NCBI GenBank assembly: GCA_937890335.1 | Contig: CALBXO010000738.1 | Span: forward strand, 1-32,474 | DNA: 32,474 nt | Direction of reading: 5' to 3' | From: an uncultured Pseudomonadota bacterium | GTDB taxonomy: Bacteria > Myxococcota_A > Bradymonadia > Bradymonadales > GCA-2716585 | In this document: piece after piece, positions 13,494 to 22,849 of the stretch | Numbering within the stretch: position 1 is the first letter of the stretch | How the letters are laid out: every line of letters starts with the position of its first letter | Translations under genes and position numbers: made by a program | The notes under the pieces: model-generated | What the model was told of the DNA's origin: nothing | The model's input: the letters and a program-made list of their open reading frames with translations, nothing else | The model's database searches: none

Positions 13494-14908
13494 TGACAAC
13501 AGACCGTATCTGGGAAGGCGACGTAGTCGTTGTGGGTGCAGGGCCGGCGGGTGCCTGGGCTGCGGCTTGCCTGGCGCGGGGCGGTGCACGCGTGGCGCTC
13601 GTCGACAGACGGCCCCGCGGCGATGCCGGCGCGCAATGGGTCAACGGGCTCGCGTCCTGGCTCCTGGACGAAGCTGGCTGCGTCCACCCCCGCCCCCCGG
13701 AGCTGCTCGGCGCAGGTCACCGCTTCACGATCCTGTCCCCGCTCGGCAACCACCGCGTCGATGTCGACGACCACCCTCTCTACGAGGTGGACATGCGTCT
13801 GCTGGGTCTGCGTCTCGCCGACGAGGCGGAGGCGGCGGGGGCTGAGATGCTCTGGGAGACCGTCGCTGAGGAGGTGGAGATTGGCTCCGCCGGTCGGCCG
13901 GTGGCGCTGACCGCCACGCGCACCTCCGGTGGCATCGAGGAGCGGCTGCGGTTGCGCGCCTCTGTGTTTGTGGATGCCTCGGGGCTGCCGGCGGTCCTTC
14001 GCCGTCAGGTGCCCCGGCTTGCGCACGCCTGTCCGCCTCCGGCGCCGTCGGACCTCTGCGTGGCTGCGCAGGAGGTCCGGGAGATCTCAGATCGCGGCGG
14101 CGCCCGGGCGTTCCTGGGCCGTCACGACGCTGAACCGGAGCAGACCCTGGCCTGGACCGGCGTGGAGGGGGGCTACTCCGTGCTGAATGTACGGGTGGAC
14201 GCTGACTTCAACCGCATGTCGATCCTGACGGGCTCCACGGCCCTGCCGCGCTACCGGTCCGGGCGCCGTATCCTTGACGATTTTGCGCGCCAACACGACT
14301 GGGTCGGGCCGCGGATCTTTGGTGGTTCGCGCGCGCTGCCACTTCGGCGCCCGTACAGCCGCCTGGTCGCGCCTGGCATTGCGCTGCTCGGCGACGCCGC
14401 CTGCCAGGTCTACCCCACGCATGGCAGCGGCATCGGGATCGGCCTGGCTGCGGCGCGCATGTTGGCCGACGCCATCCTGGGCGCCCTGCGTCGCCGCGAG
14501 GATCCGGGCGCGCGCCCGGCCATGTGGGGCTATTCCAGCGCCTTCCACCGCAAGTGGGGCGCGCTGATGTGCAGCGCGGACGCGTTCCGTCGGTTCTCGC
14601 AGACACTGCGCCCGGCGGACGTGGACCGCATGATGGGCCATGGGATTCTGAGCCCGCAGATGGTGGCCGACGGGCTGGCGCAGAGGCCCGCGTCCGTACA
14701 CCTGGACGGCCTGTGGACCCAGCTGCGCGGCATGTCCAAAGCGGGCGATCTCGCGGCCCGCTTGATCCCGGTGCTCGCGCGCTTGCCACTGATCGAGCGC
14801 GTGGCCGCCACCTACCCCAAACGCGACAGCGGTCACATCCAGGTCGACATCTATCGGTACGAGCGACGCATGCGCTGGCTCGTAGACAGTGTTGGCTCGC
14901 GCAGATAG
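13493..14908 (+). CDS. FAD-dependent oxidoreductase (geranylgeranyl-reductase/halogenase-like)
   Basis: 471 residues. The N-terminal Rossmann motif VVVVGAGPAGAWAA (11-24) ends its second strand in Asp38, and a second FAD-binding motif LLGDAACQVYPTHGSGIG lies around residue 300. Both are typical of the p-hydroxybenzoate-hydroxylase-like group that includes geranylgeranyl reductases, lycopene cyclases and halogenases. The halogenase WxWxIP motif is not present, so a reductase or monooxygenase is more likely. The substrate is unknown. The ATG overlaps the stop of the kinase gene by one base. No signal peptide; the C-terminal region has basic patches that could touch the membrane. The link to a nucleoside kinase is unexplained and may only reflect operon packing. 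Confidence 0.85.
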   Translation: MTTDRIWEGDVVVVGAGPAGAWAAACLARGGARVALVDRRPRGDAGAQWVNGLASWLLDEAGCVHPRPPELLGAGHRFTILSPLGNHRVDVDDHPLYEVDMRLLGLRLADEAEAAGAEMLWETVAEEVEIGSAGRPVALTATRTSGGIEERLRLRASVFVDASGLPAVLRRQVPRLAHACPPPAPSDLCVAAQEVREISDRGGARAFLGRHDAEPEQTLAWTGVEGGYSVLNVRVDADFNRMSILTGSTALPRYRSGRRILDDFARQHDWVGPRIFGGSRALPLRRPYSRLVAPGIALLGDAACQVYPTHGSGIGIGLAAARMLADAILGALRRREDPGARPAMWGYSSAFHRKWGALMCSADAFRRFSQTLRPADVDRMMGHGILSPQMVADGLAQRPASVHLDGLWTQLRGMSKAGDLAARLIPVLARLPLIERVAATYPKRDSGHIQVDIYRYERRMRWLVDSVGSRR

Positions 14909-14919
14909 ACTCCGCAGCC

Positions 14920-15816
14920 ATGAAGAAGAAGGGCGTCCTCACCATTTTTGTTGTCTTTGGTTTCCTGGCCACCGTGTTTTTTCTTTTCATGCTGGCGGCG
15001 CTCGGCGGAGCCGACTCAGGCCTGGCGTTGACGGGTAAAGGCATCGGCGTCGTGGAGATCCTCGGCCCGATCATGGACAGCAAGAAGGCCGTCGAACAGA
15101 TCGAGTCCTTCGCCAAGAACGACAACGTCAAAGGCATCATCCTGCGCATCGACTCGCCAGGTGGCGCAGTGGCCCCGAGCCAGGAGATCTACTACGCGGT
15201 CCACGAGGCCAAGAAGAAGAAGAAGGTCTACGTCAGCATGGGCAACCTGGCGGCCTCGGGCGGGTATTACATCGCCTGCGCGGGAGACAAGATCTATGCG
15301 TTGCCAGGCTCGGTGACGGGGTCCATAGGCGTCATCACCCAGATCACCAACGTGTCCGAGCTCGCGGAGCTGGCCAAGATAAAGATGGTCACGATCAAGA
15401 GCGGCAAGCACAAAGACATGGGCAACCCGTTCCGGGAGTTCAGCGAGGACGACCGGGCCGTGTTCACCTCCATGATCGATGACATCTACGAGCAGTTCGT
15501 GACCCATATCGCCGAGTCCCGCGGGATGGAGGTGGAGAAGGTCAAGTCGCTGGCCGATGGCCGCGTCTACACCGGTCGCCAGGCCTTGGCCAACGGCCTC
15601 GTCGATGAGCTGGGGCCACTCCAGAAGGTGGCGCTCGACCTCGGCGCTGAGGTTGGAATCGAAGGCAAGCCCGCGTTGATCTATCCTCCCAAGGATGACG
15701 ACGAGTTCCTCAAGAGACTGCTCGAGGGCTCAGCCCAGACCATCACCCGAGGCGCTCTCCGCTCCCTCTCGGAGGCCTCGGTCCCCACGTTTGAGTACCG
15801 CTATGTGGGACCGTAG
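14920..15816 (+). CDS. sppA: signal peptide peptidase SppA, short form
   Basis: 298 residues. A basic start (MKKKG) and one membrane segment (6-28) anchor the protein, with the S49 protease domain outside the cytoplasm. Key parts are RIDSPGGAV (76-84), the nucleophile Ser113 in NLAASGGYYIA, and the catalytic Lys165 in SGKHKDMGNP. DGRVYTGRQALANGLVDELG closes the domain. SppA cuts signal peptides left in the membrane after export. The length fits the single-domain type rather than the long E. coli form. It begins 11 bp after the FAD gene, and its last 14 bp overlap the start of the TolC-like gene. An operon with the two export or envelope genes behind it is likely. Confidence 0.93.
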   Translation: MKKKGVLTIFVVFGFLATVFFLFMLAALGGADSGLALTGKGIGVVEILGPIMDSKKAVEQIESFAKNDNVKGIILRIDSPGGAVAPSQEIYYAVHEAKKKKKVYVSMGNLAASGGYYIACAGDKIYALPGSVTGSIGVITQITNVSELAELAKIKMVTIKSGKHKDMGNPFREFSEDDRAVFTSMIDDIYEQFVTHIAESRGMEVEKVKSLADGRVYTGRQALANGLVDELGPLQKVALDLGAEVGIEGKPALIYPPKDDDEFLKRLLEGSAQTITRGALRSLSEASVPTFEYRYVGP

Positions 15817-18062: not shown

Positions 18063-18875
18063 TCAGGCCAGCCGGGCCTGCACGGCGAGGCCGCCGCTGA
18101 GAGCGCCCACGTCGTGGGTACGAATCCAGTCCGCCCCCTGCCGCGCGCAGTAGAGCTCGGCGGCCAGTGTGGGCGGCCCCGACTGCTCCAATTCACATCC
18201 GGTGATGCGCCGTAGGAACGACTTCCTGGAGACGCTGACCAGGACCGGGAGCCCAAAACGCTCCCGCAGCCTCGGCAGCGCCCTCAAGATGGCCAGCGAC
18301 GAGTTGGGGTCCCTACCCAGGAAGAACCCCATGCCGGGGTCCAGGACCAGCCGTTCCCGCGCGACGCCCGCGCGCACCAGGTCTCCAATTCGTCGCTCGA
18401 AGAAGGCGACGACTTCCGTGTAGATCGTAGCCGGGTCCGACGCCGCGCGGGTGGCTTTGCCTCCCCGCTGGATCGAGTGCATCACGATCAAGGTACAGTC
18501 GCCGGCCGCAAGCTCCGGGTAGAACTCTGGGTCGGCAAAGCCCTGAATGTCGTTGATTGCGTCGACGCCGGCCTGCATGGCCCACCGCTGGGTCTGGGTC
18601 AGGTAGGTGTCAATGCTCAGAGGTACCCCCGCGAGGGCGTCCACGACGGGTTCCAGGCGCCGGATCTCCTCTAGCGCGGTGACCGCTTCCGCGTCCGGAT
18701 GTGTAGACGCCGGACCCAGATCGACCATGGCTGCGCCACTCTGGAACAAGGCACGCGCGTGCGCCACGGCATTGTCAGGGTCCAGGTACAGTCCACCATC
18801 GGAGAACGAATCCCGCGTGACGTTGACGATGCCTAGGATCTTTGTGGTGGGGCCGTTGGGCGCGCTCAGCGGCAC
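18063..18875 (-). CDS. folP: dihydropteroate synthase, divergent form
   Basis: 270 residues. The enzyme joins p-aminobenzoate to the pterin pyrophosphate in folate synthesis. Family motifs: GIVNVTRDSFSDGG (15-28), INDIQGF (107-113), DPGMGFF (179-185), SVSRKSFL (214-221) and RTHDV (252-256). Loop 2, normally DVGGESTRPG, reads DLGPASTHPD here (52-61), so the conserved Arg is His. The usual Lys after the GFG motif is also missing (GFFLG). Either this is a divergent but active synthase or a related pterin-binding enzyme. Its ATG lies ten bases inside the end of the double-FHA gene, so it is probably the last gene of the FHA operon. Length is normal. Confidence 0.85.
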   Translation of the reverse strand: MPLSAPNGPTTKILGIVNVTRDSFSDGGLYLDPDNAVAHARALFQSGAAMVDLGPASTHPDAEAVTALEEIRRLEPVVDALAGVPLSIDTYLTQTQRWAMQAGVDAINDIQGFADPEFYPELAAGDCTLIVMHSIQRGGKATRAASDPATIYTEVVAFFERRIGDLVRAGVARERLVLDPGMGFFLGRDPNSSLAILRALPRLRERFGLPVLVSVSRKSFLRRITGCELEQSGPPTLAAELYCARQGADWIRTHDVGALSGGLAVQARLA

Positions 18876-20272
18876 TGCGGGGCGACTTCGTAGGGCTTGA
18901 AATCCGGGTACCGGCGGCGCTGACGTTGCATTTTGTCTTCTGCGGCCGTGATCTGATCCCGAATCTCCTTGAGCGCTGCCTTCTGGTCGGTCTTTCCGCG
19001 CGCACAGATGAGCTCGAACGCCTTGACGAAGGCTTCCTGGGCGGTGCCGTACTCGTTCTTGTCCATGGCCTCGCGCGCGGCCTTCTTGTACTGGTTGGCC
19101 AGGATCTGCCGGACCTCGTCGAGCTCCTTTGCGGCGGTGTCGTGCGCGCTGGTGCCGTCGGGCACGGACTCGAGCTTCTTGAGGGCGTCGTCGTACTGGG
19201 CTTTGCCCTTGAGCTTGAGGCCCGCCTCGAATTTCTCCTGGGCGTCCTGCTCCTTGACCGCCTGGGCCTTGAGCTTCTTGGCGTCCTCGCTGTCCGGCTT
19301 GGCCGTCAGCGCCTCGTCAAACTTGGCGATGGCGTCCGTCCACTTCTGCTGGGACATGAGCGCGCGCCCGTCGTTGACGAGCGAGTCGGCCTTCTGCTCG
19401 GGGCTCAGCTCCGTCGCGATCGGCGGAACCTCTTCCACCTGGCTCGAGCTGTACAGCCACCATCCCGCGGCAGCGGCGATGGCGAGCGTCAGGAACAGAA
19501 GCATGACGATGAGCAGGCCGACGATGATGACGCCGATGCCGATTCCGCCGCCGCCACTGCTGCGTCCGGAACCGCCGGTCTTGGGCATGGGGGCCGCGGG
19601 CCCGGCGTACTTGCTGACGTCGACGTTCTCGCCGCTGGGGACGAAGATGAAGTCGACGTTTCCAAAGCTGACGCGGTCCCGCTCGCGAAGGATTGTGGGT
19701 CCGGAGATGCGCTTGGCACCCACCGAGCTTCCGTTGGAGGAGCCCAGGTCCGCGAGGGTGTAGACCATGCCATCGCAGTCGATGTTCGCGTGGCGGCGGG
19801 AGGCCGAGGGATCGTTAAGGAAGATGGTGTTGTCTTCCGTTCGACCGACCGTGTTTCTGCGCTCGGTCAGCGGGAAGACTTCTCCGGCGAACGAGTCGCC
19901 GACGCGGACGAGTTTGTAGGCGTTCTCGTCCTGGCTGACGATGTGCGTAGAGACGACATCCTGCTTGTCGTCCTCCTCGTTGTTGAACTCGAGGTAGAGG
20001 TAGTAGTCGCCGATGCGGATCTGCGCGGCCGAGCCCAGATCGCGCTGACCCTGAATCCGCTGCCCATCGACGATGACGCCGTTGGACGAGCCCAAGTCTT
20101 CAATGAAGCACTTGGAGTCCCGGATGAACATACGGGCGTGCTGCCGCGACACATTGCTGCTGGGCAGAATGATGTCGTTGCCGTCGACCCGTCCTATCAG
20201 GTAGGTCCCGTGATTGAACGAGAACTCGTCGGCGATGACGCCATTCTTGTCCTCGATGATCAGGGTATACAT
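18866..20272 (-). CDS. double-FHA membrane protein with periplasmic TPR-like region
   Basis: 468 residues. Two forkhead-associated domains sit at the N-terminus: FHA1 about 1-100 (Gly27-Arg28, SRQHAR 42-47, GSSNG 61-65) and FHA2 about 118-212 (Gly143-Arg144, SRRHAN 158-163, GSSNG 177-181). Both keep the residues that bind phosphothreonine. A Gly-rich linker leads to one membrane helix (about 244-273). The C-terminal 190 residues are charged and helical, with TPR-like units (SLVNDGRALMSQQKWTDAI, KFEAGLKLKGKAQYDDALKK), and should face the periplasm. It thus could link a phosphorylated cytoplasmic partner to a periplasmic scaffold. SD GAGG precedes the ATG; 17 bp separate it from the FHA-CpaF gene. 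Confidence 0.88.
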   Translation of the reverse strand: MYTLIIEDKNGVIADEFSFNHGTYLIGRVDGNDIILPSSNVSRQHARMFIRDSKCFIEDLGSSNGVIVDGQRIQGQRDLGSAAQIRIGDYYLYLEFNNEEDDKQDVVSTHIVSQDENAYKLVRVGDSFAGEVFPLTERRNTVGRTEDNTIFLNDPSASRRHANIDCDGMVYTLADLGSSNGSSVGAKRISGPTILRERDRVSFGNVDFIFVPSGENVDVSKYAGPAAPMPKTGGSGRSSGGGGIGIGVIIVGLLIVMLLFLTLAIAAAAGWWLYSSSQVEEVPPIATELSPEQKADSLVNDGRALMSQQKWTDAIAKFDEALTAKPDSEDAKKLKAQAVKEQDAQEKFEAGLKLKGKAQYDDALKKLESVPDGTSAHDTAAKELDEVRQILANQYKKAAREAMDKNEYGTAQEAFVKAFELICARGKTDQKAALKEIRDQITAAEDKMQRQRRRYPDFKPYEVAPQCR

Positions 20273-20289: not shown

Positions 20290-22293
20290 TCAGCCGAAGA
20301 TGCTCGTGTCCACCGCCTGACCGGCGGCACGCAGCGCCTCGTAGAACACGGGAACGTAGCCGGTGGCGACAAAGTTCCCACCCCCTGTTTCCGCGCGCCA
20401 GTAGAACACATCGTTGATGCGGAAGGCATCCATATCCATGCCTTGCACCTCCGAGATCTGCTGCACGCGGGCCTGTCCGTTTCCGTCGTGGTGGACGACA
20501 ACGACCAGGTGAACGGCGCGTGCGATCTGCTCCCGAAGCCCGCGGGGCGACGCGTCGAATGCGCCGAGCTGGGCCAGGGATTGGAGGCGACCGATGGCGT
20601 CCTTGCTGGAGGAACCGTTGACCGTGGCCAGCGATCCGGACGTACCGGCGGCGGCGGCGGCGACCCACTCGTAGGCCTCGCCGCCCTGGAGGGTGTTCAC
20701 CAGAATGCGCTCAGGTGCCATGCGCAACGCGGCGCGCAGCAGGTAGCGTGTGTCGTATTGCCCAGCGGAGGCGACGTCGAGGTTGACGACGCTGTGCTGC
20801 GGCAAGTGGACGGAGCCCGAGTTTTCCACCAGGACGATGCGGGTGCCGTCTGCGATTCCGGCGCCGAGGGAGCCAAGGAGCTCGTCTCTGGCGGCGGCCG
20901 AAGCCCCGGCGATCAGGATGGTTCTGCCGGCGTCAACCGCCTGCCGAAGCATCTCTGCCATGCCGGTGCTCATGACACCAGCGGTGGCCAGATCATCCAG
21001 GCTGCGTGCGGCCCCGCGGCTCTTGCGCACCGTGAGCACAGGACCTCGCGGCGCCAGTGGTGGCATGAGGATGTGCACGCGCGTACCGTCGGAGAAGCGG
21101 ACTTCCTCGGCGGGCTGGCTGTTGGGGTCCTCCAACCGTGCGCCGAGCAATCGCTGCGCCGCCAGGAAGAGGAAGTCGGGGTGGCTGTACGCCCGCGCCG
21201 CCGTGGAGACGCGGTTGCCCTGCTTGGTCAGGATCTGGTCAAAGCTGTTGACGTAGATCTCTTCGACATTCTGGTCGTCGAGGAGGTTCTCAAGCGGTCC
21301 GAGGCCGACAATCTCGCTGAGCAGGTGGTCGGCGACCTCCGAATTGCCCTGCGCGGCGTCGGACGCGGCGCCTTCCCACTGGGCCCGGTCCTCGGGACTG
21401 GGCGGATAATGGGCCGGAAGCGTCGACGGATCCACGGTTGCGAAGAAGCGTCCGGCGGCGTCCGCCTGGCTCTGCGCGAAACCCTCGTCGCGCTGCTGCA
21501 CGAACTCGGGCTTGGTGGTGACGATCCCAGCACCGGGCGTGTAGAGAGAAGGCATGGCGCCAAGCTGCGGCGGAGGCGCAAGGGGTGCGGGCGCATGCAC
21601 CGGTGCAGCCGGACCCGGAGGCGCCGACAGCGGTGGCGCGCTGCGCGGTTGCACCGCAGGCGTATTTTGGGCTGTCGCAGGGCCGGCGAGGGGTCCCGGG
21701 CGAGGCGGCGCAGGCGTCGAGACCGGTGCCGGGGAGCCGGACAACGGAGACGGACCGGGCGCGCCTTGGCGCGGTGACAACGCGGGCGCAGGCTTGGCTG
21801 GCTTCGGCGGTGGCGCCGGCTTGGGCACCGCTGCGGGCGGCAGCGGCGCGGCCTGCGGCATCGCGGGGCTGCTCTGGCGCGGCGAGATCGGAGCGGACGG
21901 ACCCTGGCCAGCCAACGAGGGCGGTGGCGCGGGCGCGTTCATCTCCTGGATCCCAGGCCCTGGCCCTGGCATGGCCGGGGCGTCAGGTGCCGCGCCGGCT
22001 GCCGCCGACTCCTGGATGTTGAGTACGAAGTCACCGATGTACACCTTGTCGTTGGTCTTGATCACCTGCGGAGAGGTGATCTTGCGACCGTTGACGTAGG
22101 TGCCGTTGGTGCTTTTCAGGTCGACGACAATGAACTTTCCGTCCTTGACGACGATCCGACTATGACGCTTGGAGACGTTCCCCTTCGGCAGGACAATATC
22201 ATTGCCCTTGACCCGGCCAATACTGACCTCGGTCTTATCGAACGAATAGGTAGACTGGGGACCGTCTTTCTCAGAAACCGTGACTGCGAACAC
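20290..22293 (-). CDS. FHA domain fused to a CpaF-type secretion ATPase domain, probably inactive
   Basis: 667 residues from a GTG with AGGAG six bases ahead. The FHA domain (1-95) has Gly26-Arg27, SKRHSR (41-46) and STNGTYVNG (61-69). A 200-residue Pro/Ala/Gln linker follows (about 96-295). The C-terminal part (about 318-615) follows the CpaF/VirB11 ATPase plan: EIVGLGPLENLLDD, EEVRFSDGTRVHIL, GRTILIAG, ALRMAPERILVNTLQGGEA, GSLATVNGSSSKDAIGRL. The nucleotide-binding residues are lost: the Walker A site reads GASAAARDEL (463-472) with no Lys-Thr, the usual VGEVRGGEA is VNTLQGGEA, and the usual His in ATVHANS is Asn. So it keeps the fold but probably not ATP hydrolysis. It may act as a phosphothreonine-directed adaptor. 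Confidence 0.88.
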   Translation of the reverse strand: MFAVTVSEKDGPQSTYSFDKTEVSIGRVKGNDIVLPKGNVSKRHSRIVVKDGKFIVVDLKSTNGTYVNGRKITSPQVIKTNDKVYIGDFVLNIQESAAAGAAPDAPAMPGPGPGIQEMNAPAPPPSLAGQGPSAPISPRQSSPAMPQAAPLPPAAVPKPAPPPKPAKPAPALSPRQGAPGPSPLSGSPAPVSTPAPPRPGPLAGPATAQNTPAVQPRSAPPLSAPPGPAAPVHAPAPLAPPPQLGAMPSLYTPGAGIVTTKPEFVQQRDEGFAQSQADAAGRFFATVDPSTLPAHYPPSPEDRAQWEGAASDAAQGNSEVADHLLSEIVGLGPLENLLDDQNVEEIYVNSFDQILTKQGNRVSTAARAYSHPDFLFLAAQRLLGARLEDPNSQPAEEVRFSDGTRVHILMPPLAPRGPVLTVRKSRGAARSLDDLATAGVMSTGMAEMLRQAVDAGRTILIAGASAAARDELLGSLGAGIADGTRIVLVENSGSVHLPQHSVVNLDVASAGQYDTRYLLRAALRMAPERILVNTLQGGEAYEWVAAAAAGTSGSLATVNGSSSKDAIGRLQSLAQLGAFDASPRGLREQIARAVHLVVVVHHDGNGQARVQQISEVQGMDMDAFRINDVFYWRAETGGGNFVATGYVPVFYEALRAAGQAVDTSIFG

Positions 22294-22519: not shown

Positions 22520-22849
22520 ATGGCGGACCACCCACAGGCGATTGTACTGCTCCTGGAGGACGCCCAGGGCGCCGTCGGCGAGGGGTCGTGCAGGTTCCGG
22601 GTAGAGCGTGAGGCCATCATCGGCCGAGGCGCCGATGCCGATCTGACTCTGGCGGATGTCCGCGTGTCCCGCCGGCATGCGCGCGTGTTTGCCGAGCAGG
22701 ACGCCTGGTGGGTCGAGGACGCGGGCAGCACCAGCGGCTGTTGGCTCAATTCCACCCGCGTAGCCGGTCGTCGTCGAGTCATGCCCGGCGACGAGCTCCG
22801 GCTGGGAGGCGTGGTGTTGAGGGTGTCCAAGGAGCCCGAGGCTCCCTGA
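22520..22849 (+). CDS. stand-alone FHA-domain protein
   Basis: 109 residues from the ATG at 22520 (GTG at 22517 is also possible; GGGG lies five bases ahead). Almost the entire protein is one FHA domain: Gly35-Arg36 in IIGRGADADL, SRRHAR at 50-55, and a GSTSG loop at 69-73 in place of the usual GSTNG. It should bind phosphothreonine peptides, the His and Arg of the binding loops being present. It has no other domain, so it is likely a small adaptor. It is divergent from the FHA-CpaF gene, with 226 bp between the starts, and 80 bp before the next lipoprotein. Confidence 0.87.
   Translation: MADHPQAIVLLLEDAQGAVGEGSCRFRVEREAIIGRGADADLTLADVRVSRRHARVFAEQDAWWVEDAGSTSGCWLNSTRVAGRRRVMPGDELRLGGVVLRVSKEPEAP

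What the first reader, a model, noticed from the sequence alone, without database searches (positions are those of the whole stretch)
20290..22293. FHA-CpaF fusion with eroded ATPase motifs: a pseudo-ATPase adaptor
The CpaF-like domain keeps its length and landmarks (GSLATV..., ...GGEA), but the Walker A Lys-Thr is gone (GASAAARDEL at 463-472), the Glu/Arg of VGEVRGGEA are Thr/Gln, and the usual His is Asn. The open frame is intact and FHA residues are conserved, so it is not a decaying gene. A secretion-ATPase fold used as a phosphothreonine-controlled scaffold would be new to me.
Basis: partly seen in the sequence, partly recalled or inferred. Interest (0 to 1): 0.75.

Follow-up and report, generated by a model that had tools for sequence, protein, structure and literature searches.

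The report
Pilus motor turned phospho-reading pseudo-ATPase
In a lineage of predatory-type bacteria (Bradymonadia, Myxococcota), a pilus-motor protein has kept a nearly unchanged phosphate-reading FHA domain but has lost, in several groups, the residues needed to burn ATP, so the motor fold appears to have been re-used as a non-motor signalling adaptor.

Summary
The 667-aa minus-strand ORF is FHA, Pro-rich linker, CpaF/VirB11-type ATPase domain. It lacks the Walker A Lys (it is Arg469), the catalytic Walker B Glu (Thr534), the neighbouring Arg (Gln536) and the His (Asn559).
It is not one broken copy. All five sampled genera of its family share the loss. So do all sampled copies in two other families of the class and in two genera of the sister family. 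That sister family (Bradymonas, Persicimonas relatives) otherwise keeps Lys and Glu. Together these 32 genes form one clade, separate from the Kil/Tad motors (100/100). Every member has also lost the two loops predicted to grip the pilus platform and the Mg-binding Glu312.
Constraint has moved to the FHA. In the same 12 genomes the ATPase domain averages 60% identity, against 84% in the true Kil motor. In the window's own family FHA identity is 89% and ATPase-domain identity 60%. A membrane-spanning FHA-FHA-TM-TPR protein is always encoded next door. Genomes of the window's family have no Tad pilus.
FHA-CpaF fusions are known (KilF, 'class III' CpaF). A platform-uncoupled, ATPase-dead clade was not found in the literature searched. 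The adaptor role is inferred, and nucleotide binding without hydrolysis is not excluded.

The parts
20290..22293 (-). FHA-CpaF2 gene (667 aa, GTG start), here called CpaF2
   Evidence: intact ORF, orthologues
22033..22227 (-). FHA domain, residues 23-87, with GR, SKRH and TNG residues intact
   Evidence: Pfam 4e-18; 89% mean identity within the family
21409..21996 (-). Pro/Ala-rich, probably disordered linker, residues about 100-295
   Evidence: sequence; variable in length between orthologues
20374..21396 (-). CpaF/VirB11-like domain, residues about 300-640
   Evidence: phmmer to CpaF structures 3.8e-38
21115..21144 (-). loop 8 region, residues 384-393 (GARLEDPNSQ), lacking the GRRxD platform motif
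   Evidence: alignment; motif from PMC12019362
20878..20907 (-). degenerate Walker A GASAAARDEL, residues 463-472; K287 equivalent is R469
20746..20796 (-). shortened extended pore loop, residues 500-516 (17 residues against 22 in Tad motors)
20674..20703 (-). degenerate Walker B LVNTLQGGEA, residues 531-540; E357 equivalent is T534
20617..20619 (-). Asn559 in place of the conserved His
18866..20272 (-). operon partner, FHA-FHA-TM-TPR (468 aa), 17 bp downstream; TM near residues 248-266
   Evidence: Pfam FHA x2 2.3e-34 and weak TPR; TM in all complete copies; adjacent to CpaF2 in the loci examined that are not cut by a contig end
22406..22849 (+). divergent single-FHA protein upstream (likely start at 22520)
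   Evidence: Pfam FHA 3.5e-16

Best explanation
The gene belongs to a distinct clade of FHA-CpaF proteins of Bradymonadia, here called CpaF2, that is a paralogue of the Kil/Tad pilus motor. It was first uncoupled from the pilus platform, and later lost ATP hydrolysis in several lineages including this one. Most likely it now works as a phosphorylation-dependent adaptor. The almost invariant FHA domain docks on a phosphothreonine protein. The CpaF fold serves as an oligomerisation or display platform, probably ring-shaped. The co-encoded FHA-FHA-TM-TPR protein links the assembly to the inner membrane and periplasm. Shown: motif losses, their distribution, loss of platform loops, shift of constraint to the FHA, fixed gene pairing, absence of Tad genes in the host family. 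Inferred: phosphothreonine binding (from FHA residues), oligomerisation (from homology), adaptor function, and partnership (from synteny).
For: Family-wide loss of Walker A Lys and Walker B Glu. CpaF2 separates from 43 canonical CpaF/KilF rows with 100/100 support. All 32 clade genes lack E312, the GRRxD loop-8 motif and the full-length pore loop, including those with intact Walker A. FHA identity against ATPase-domain identity is 89 vs 60 in the window's family and 92 vs 69 in f5. In 12 shared genomes FHA/domain identity is 67/60 for CpaF2 and 73/84 for KilF; FHA exceeds the domain in 56 of 65 CpaF2 pairs but 2 of 65 KilF pairs. The partner is adjacent, with a TM segment. There is no CpaB, KilH or other CpaF in any of the five f1 genomes. 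No Tad genes were seen near CpaF2. R469 is conserved as Arg in 14 of 15 Lys-less copies, mostly with CGC codons.
Against: No experiment and no reliable structure (pLDDT 40.9). A faster-evolving ATPase domain could reflect relaxed constraint on a leftover domain. Walker K-to-R can leave ATP binding intact, so 'nucleotide-free scaffold' is not established. Seventeen orthologues of the sister family keep Lys, and 16 of them keep the Glu, so ATPase activity may still matter there. The neighbourhood outside the gene pair differs between families (Opp transporter against UDP-glucose dehydrogenase), so no pathway is pinned down.
Confidence: 0.5

Rival explanations
1. Nucleotide-binding switch: the K-to-R P-loop still binds ATP or ADP without hydrolysis, and the ring is a nucleotide-gated adaptor rather than a nucleotide-free scaffold.
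For: Arg is kept at the Lys position in 14 of 15 copies although neighbouring P-loop residues drift. R347, R217 and R223 are kept in the window protein. From general knowledge, Walker K-to-R in RecA/Rad51-type folds can bind ATP without turnover.
Against: Thr288, E312 and E357 are also gone in the window protein. The P-loop Gly pattern is broken (GASAAAR).
Confidence: 0.22
2. Auxiliary Tad/Kil motor or regulator that is losing its role where the pilus was lost; the window copy is a lingering relic.
For: All 13 CpaF2 genomes without KilH have Lys-less copies and all 17 Lys-bearing copies are in Tad genomes (Fisher p 3e-7). It shares the FHA-CpaF architecture with KilF.
Against: Only 1-2 phylogenetically independent contrasts, not significant. 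Two genomes with Tad genes (G219, G082) have Lys-less copies. Platform-binding loops are missing even in the Lys-bearing copies. The gene was not found in a Tad cluster. The FHA is hyper-conserved and the ORF intact in Tad-less families.
Confidence: 0.2
3. Ordinary gene decay: a dying paralogue with no present function.
For: Catalytic residues lost; the ATPase domain evolves fast.
Against: Intact frames in every complete Lys-less gene across 3 families and 2 further genera; 89-92% FHA identity between relatives; fixed operon partner.
Confidence: 0.05

Closest known systems
KilF (MXAN_3107), FHA-CpaF motor of the Myxococcus xanthus Kil/Tad system (PMC8460266, PMC12075869)
   Same: FHA, linker, CpaF architecture; same phylum; the domain is homologous along its whole length
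   Different: KilF-type proteins sampled here keep every catalytic residue and both platform loops, and the one whose neighbours were scanned sits in a Tad cluster. CpaF2 is a separate clade without the loops, outside Tad clusters, and here without Lys or Glu.
Class III CpaF (FHA-IDR-CpaF), and C. crescentus CpaF structures 8rkd/9e24 (PMC12019362)
   Same: Domain order and fold by sequence (E 3.8e-38)
   Different: K287, T288, E312 and E357 are all replaced; pore loop shortened; loop-8 GRRxD absent.
EssC/EccC of type VII secretion (PMC4925161)
   Same: FHA domains fused to P-loop ATPase modules, some of which have degenerate motifs
   Different: FtsK/SpoIIIE family, membrane protein. EssC FHA domains lack the pThr-binding residues, the opposite of the present case.
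T6SS Fha/PpkA phosphothreonine pathway (PMC3953482)
   Same: FHA reading of phosphothreonine controls a secretion machine (proposed analogy)
   Different: Fha carries no ATPase fold (own knowledge). No T6SS genes were seen next to CpaF2; presence elsewhere was not searched.

Membership tests
PilT/VirB11-like secretion ATPase (Pfam T2SSE PF00437) | Sequence homology over NTD and CAD | tested here: met
   Pfam 1.6e-15, CpaF 3.8e-38
PilT/VirB11-like secretion ATPase (Pfam T2SSE PF00437) | Walker A GxxxxGK[ST] and catalytic Walker B Glu | tested here: not met
   GASAAAR(D), VNTLQGGEA
PilT/VirB11-like secretion ATPase (Pfam T2SSE PF00437) | ATP hydrolysis and hexamer formation | not testable with these tools
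   no reliable model
Tad/Kil pilus motor (CpaF/KilF) | Platform-contact elements: loop 8 G204/R205/R206/D208 and extended pore loop E331/G334 | tested here: not met
   lost in every CpaF2 row
Tad/Kil pilus motor (CpaF/KilF) | Encoded with or alongside Tad platform, secretin and CpaB | tested here: not met
   no CpaB or KilH in any f1 genome; no Tad genes near CpaF2; the genomes are drafts
Tad/Kil pilus motor (CpaF/KilF) | Falls inside the KilF/CpaF clade | tested here: not met
   separate clade 100/100; root unknown
Class III CpaF architecture | FHA-IDR-CpaF domain order | tested here: met
Phosphothreonine-binding FHA | GR, SxxH, TNG residues | tested here: met
   nearly invariant across the clade
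Phosphothreonine-binding FHA | Binding of pThr peptide | not testable with these tools
   needs biochemistry

The most novel reading that the evidence does not exclude
A pilus-motor hexamer was uncoupled from its platform once in the ancestor of Bradymonadia and turned into a phosphothreonine-reading ring. Its ATPase was then lost independently in up to four lineages, leaving a pseudo-ATPase adaptor paired with a membrane FHA-FHA-TPR protein: a new use of a secretion ATPase fold.
Probability: 0.42. Interest if true: 0.75.

Novelty: new variant of a known kind. Interest (0 to 1): 0.6.

Why it matters
Pseudo-enzymes are well studied for kinases but hardly described for type IV pilus or type IV secretion motors. 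This clade is a natural series in one class: intact motor (KilF), platform-uncoupled but Lys/Glu-bearing (sister family), and Lys/Glu-less (window family). That makes it possible to test in which order a motor loses coupling and then catalysis, and what the fold is good for without ATP turnover. It also warns against annotating every FHA-CpaF protein as a pilus motor or as evidence of a Tad/Kil killing system.

Tried and rejected
'Single loss' test: holding all Lys-less rows together, motif columns removed, is 21.7 lnL worse but not rejected (AU p 0.149), so the number of independent losses is not proven by the tree alone. Unordered parsimony also allows one early loss plus regain; I disfavour it because at least four catalytic residues would have to return. 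The link between Walker A loss and absence of Tad was considered causal and set aside, since only 1-2 independent contrasts exist. First idea that 14524-15816 is MlaD was wrong: it is an S49 peptidase. Literature searches for pseudo-ATPases of pilus motors gave nothing relevant (open-access library only).

Full report
WHAT IS THERE. The ORF at 20290-22293 on the minus strand is real and intact: 667 aa, GTG start after AGGAG. It has an N-terminal FHA domain, a roughly 200-residue Pro-rich linker, and a full CpaF-type NTD and ATPase domain. On C. crescentus CpaF numbering (residue roles from PMC12019362), K287 is Arg469, T288 is Asp470, E312 is Ser494, E357 is Thr534, and the His is Asn559. R217, R223 and R347 are retained. 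In the printed table the column headings G286/K287/T288 are shifted by one; the column headed G286 is K287. By inspection, no other GxxxxGK[ST] occurs in the protein.

RELATIVES. Searches of 284 genomes of the phylum, then all 26 held of the order and 57 of the class, gave the distribution. The class is Bradymonadia. One sampled sister-family genome has exactly the published length of Bradymonas sediminis FA350 (5,045,683 bp), and another is within 100 bp of Persicimonas caeni. Family labels f1 to f7 and genus labels g1, g2 and so on are those given by the tool. All five f1 genomes (the window's family) have one CpaF2 gene, without Lys and Glu. The same holds for five sampled f5 genomes, the one f6 genome, and genera g13 and g15 of f2. 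The other 17 f2 genomes keep Walker A Lys, and 16 of them keep Glu (Gln in L049). These f2 copies have instead lost R347 (Ala, Ser or Gly), and like all clade members lack E312.

TREE. With 76 rows and LG+C20, CpaF2 is separated from 43 canonical KilF, TadA and CpaF rows by a 100/100 branch. Inside, the order is (f5,f6) against (f1,f2). The clade holds 33 rows but 32 genes, because one f5 gene (L104 and L126) was fetched twice. Under no-regain, Lys and Glu were lost four times: in f5+f6, f1, g15 and g13. g13 is nested among Lys-bearing genomes both in the motif-free CpaF2 tree (SH 88) and by its TadA-type gene, which groups with g14 (97/94). The alternative of all Lys-less genes forming one clade is worse by 21.7 lnL but not rejected (AU p 0.149). 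So 'several independent losses' is favoured, not proven.

UNCOUPLED FROM THE PILUS. CpaF is predicted to grip its platform proteins with loop 8 (G204, R205, R206, D208) and an extended pore loop (E331, G334) (PMC12019362). The KilF-type rows keep the GRR-D motif, and every canonical row keeps a 22-residue pore-loop segment. All CpaF2 rows, with or without Walker A Lys, lack the GRR-D motif and have the segment cut to 15-21 residues. In f2 the true KilF motor lies in a Tad cluster with CpaB, secretin and two T2SSF proteins (L107). CpaF2 lies elsewhere, downstream of an oligopeptide ABC transporter operon in most f2 loci examined and next to one in f6. In f1 there is no CpaB, no KilH and no other CpaF at all. 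Drafts may miss genes, but five of five agree.

CONSTRAINT HAS MOVED TO THE FHA. Within f1 the FHA averages 89% identity and the ATPase domain 60%; within f5 92% against 69%; canonical motors across families show the reverse, 42% against 67%. A paired control in 12 f2 genomes gives the same picture: CpaF2 FHA 67%, domain 60%; KilF FHA 73%, domain 84%; FHA exceeds the domain in 56 of 65 pairs for CpaF2 and 2 of 65 for KilF. The phosphothreonine-binding residues are conserved throughout. At the dead P-loop, Arg is kept in 14 of 15 Lys-less copies, often as CGC, at least two changes away from a Lys codon. This suggests the Arg is selected, perhaps for binding a phosphate.

PARTNER. Directly downstream (17 bp in the window) is an FHA-FHA protein with one TM segment and a C-terminal TPR part. 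The TM is seen in all complete copies, and the gene is adjacent in the loci examined that are not cut by a contig end. The expected topology, FHA domains in the cytoplasm and TPR in the periplasm, is inference.

MECHANISM. Best explanation: a phosphorylation-dependent adaptor built on a retired motor fold (0.5). Rivals: a nucleotide-binding but non-hydrolysing switch (0.22); an auxiliary Tad factor becoming a relic (0.2); plain decay (0.05).

NOVELTY. FHA-CpaF fusions are known. A clade of them that is platform-uncoupled and partly ATPase-dead was not found in the papers searched (open-access only). I rate it a new variant of a known kind.

Noticed in passing
L078:881-10302; also L070, L071, L072, L085, L087: In most of the sister-family loci CpaF2 follows an OppABCDF-type peptide transporter operon in the same direction; the functional meaning is unknown.
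   Followed up: partly
window:24975-26519 (-): 514-aa protein with signal peptide and a barrel-like C-terminus (ends GGGVAVGF), no Pfam match; it sits upstream of CpaF2 with UDP-glucose dehydrogenase and rhomboid genes in three genera of the family.
   Followed up: partly
window:14524-18005 (+): S49 peptidase, TolC-like and MlaC genes, convergent to the FHA pair; this block is conserved next to CpaF2 in both families of the order.
   Followed up: partly
L069:12702-14978 (+), L077:10546-13224 (-): Ser/Thr protein kinase genes near CpaF2 in Bradymonas and in family f6.
   Followed up: no
L104/L126-L130, f5 family: f5 copies have a degenerate P-loop GAQxxGRT and VDSI-type Walker B; one f5 genome (G141, 99% complete) had no CpaF match at all.
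   Followed up: no
f2 genomes, e.g. L108, L114, L118: A third CpaF-type ATPase (about 372 aa, no FHA, intact motifs), often about 16 kb from kilF.
   Followed up: partly
window:22708-24594 (+): Choice-of-anchor D / ASH-Hydin-type Ig protein inserted between CpaF2 and its usual upstream neighbours.
   Followed up: no
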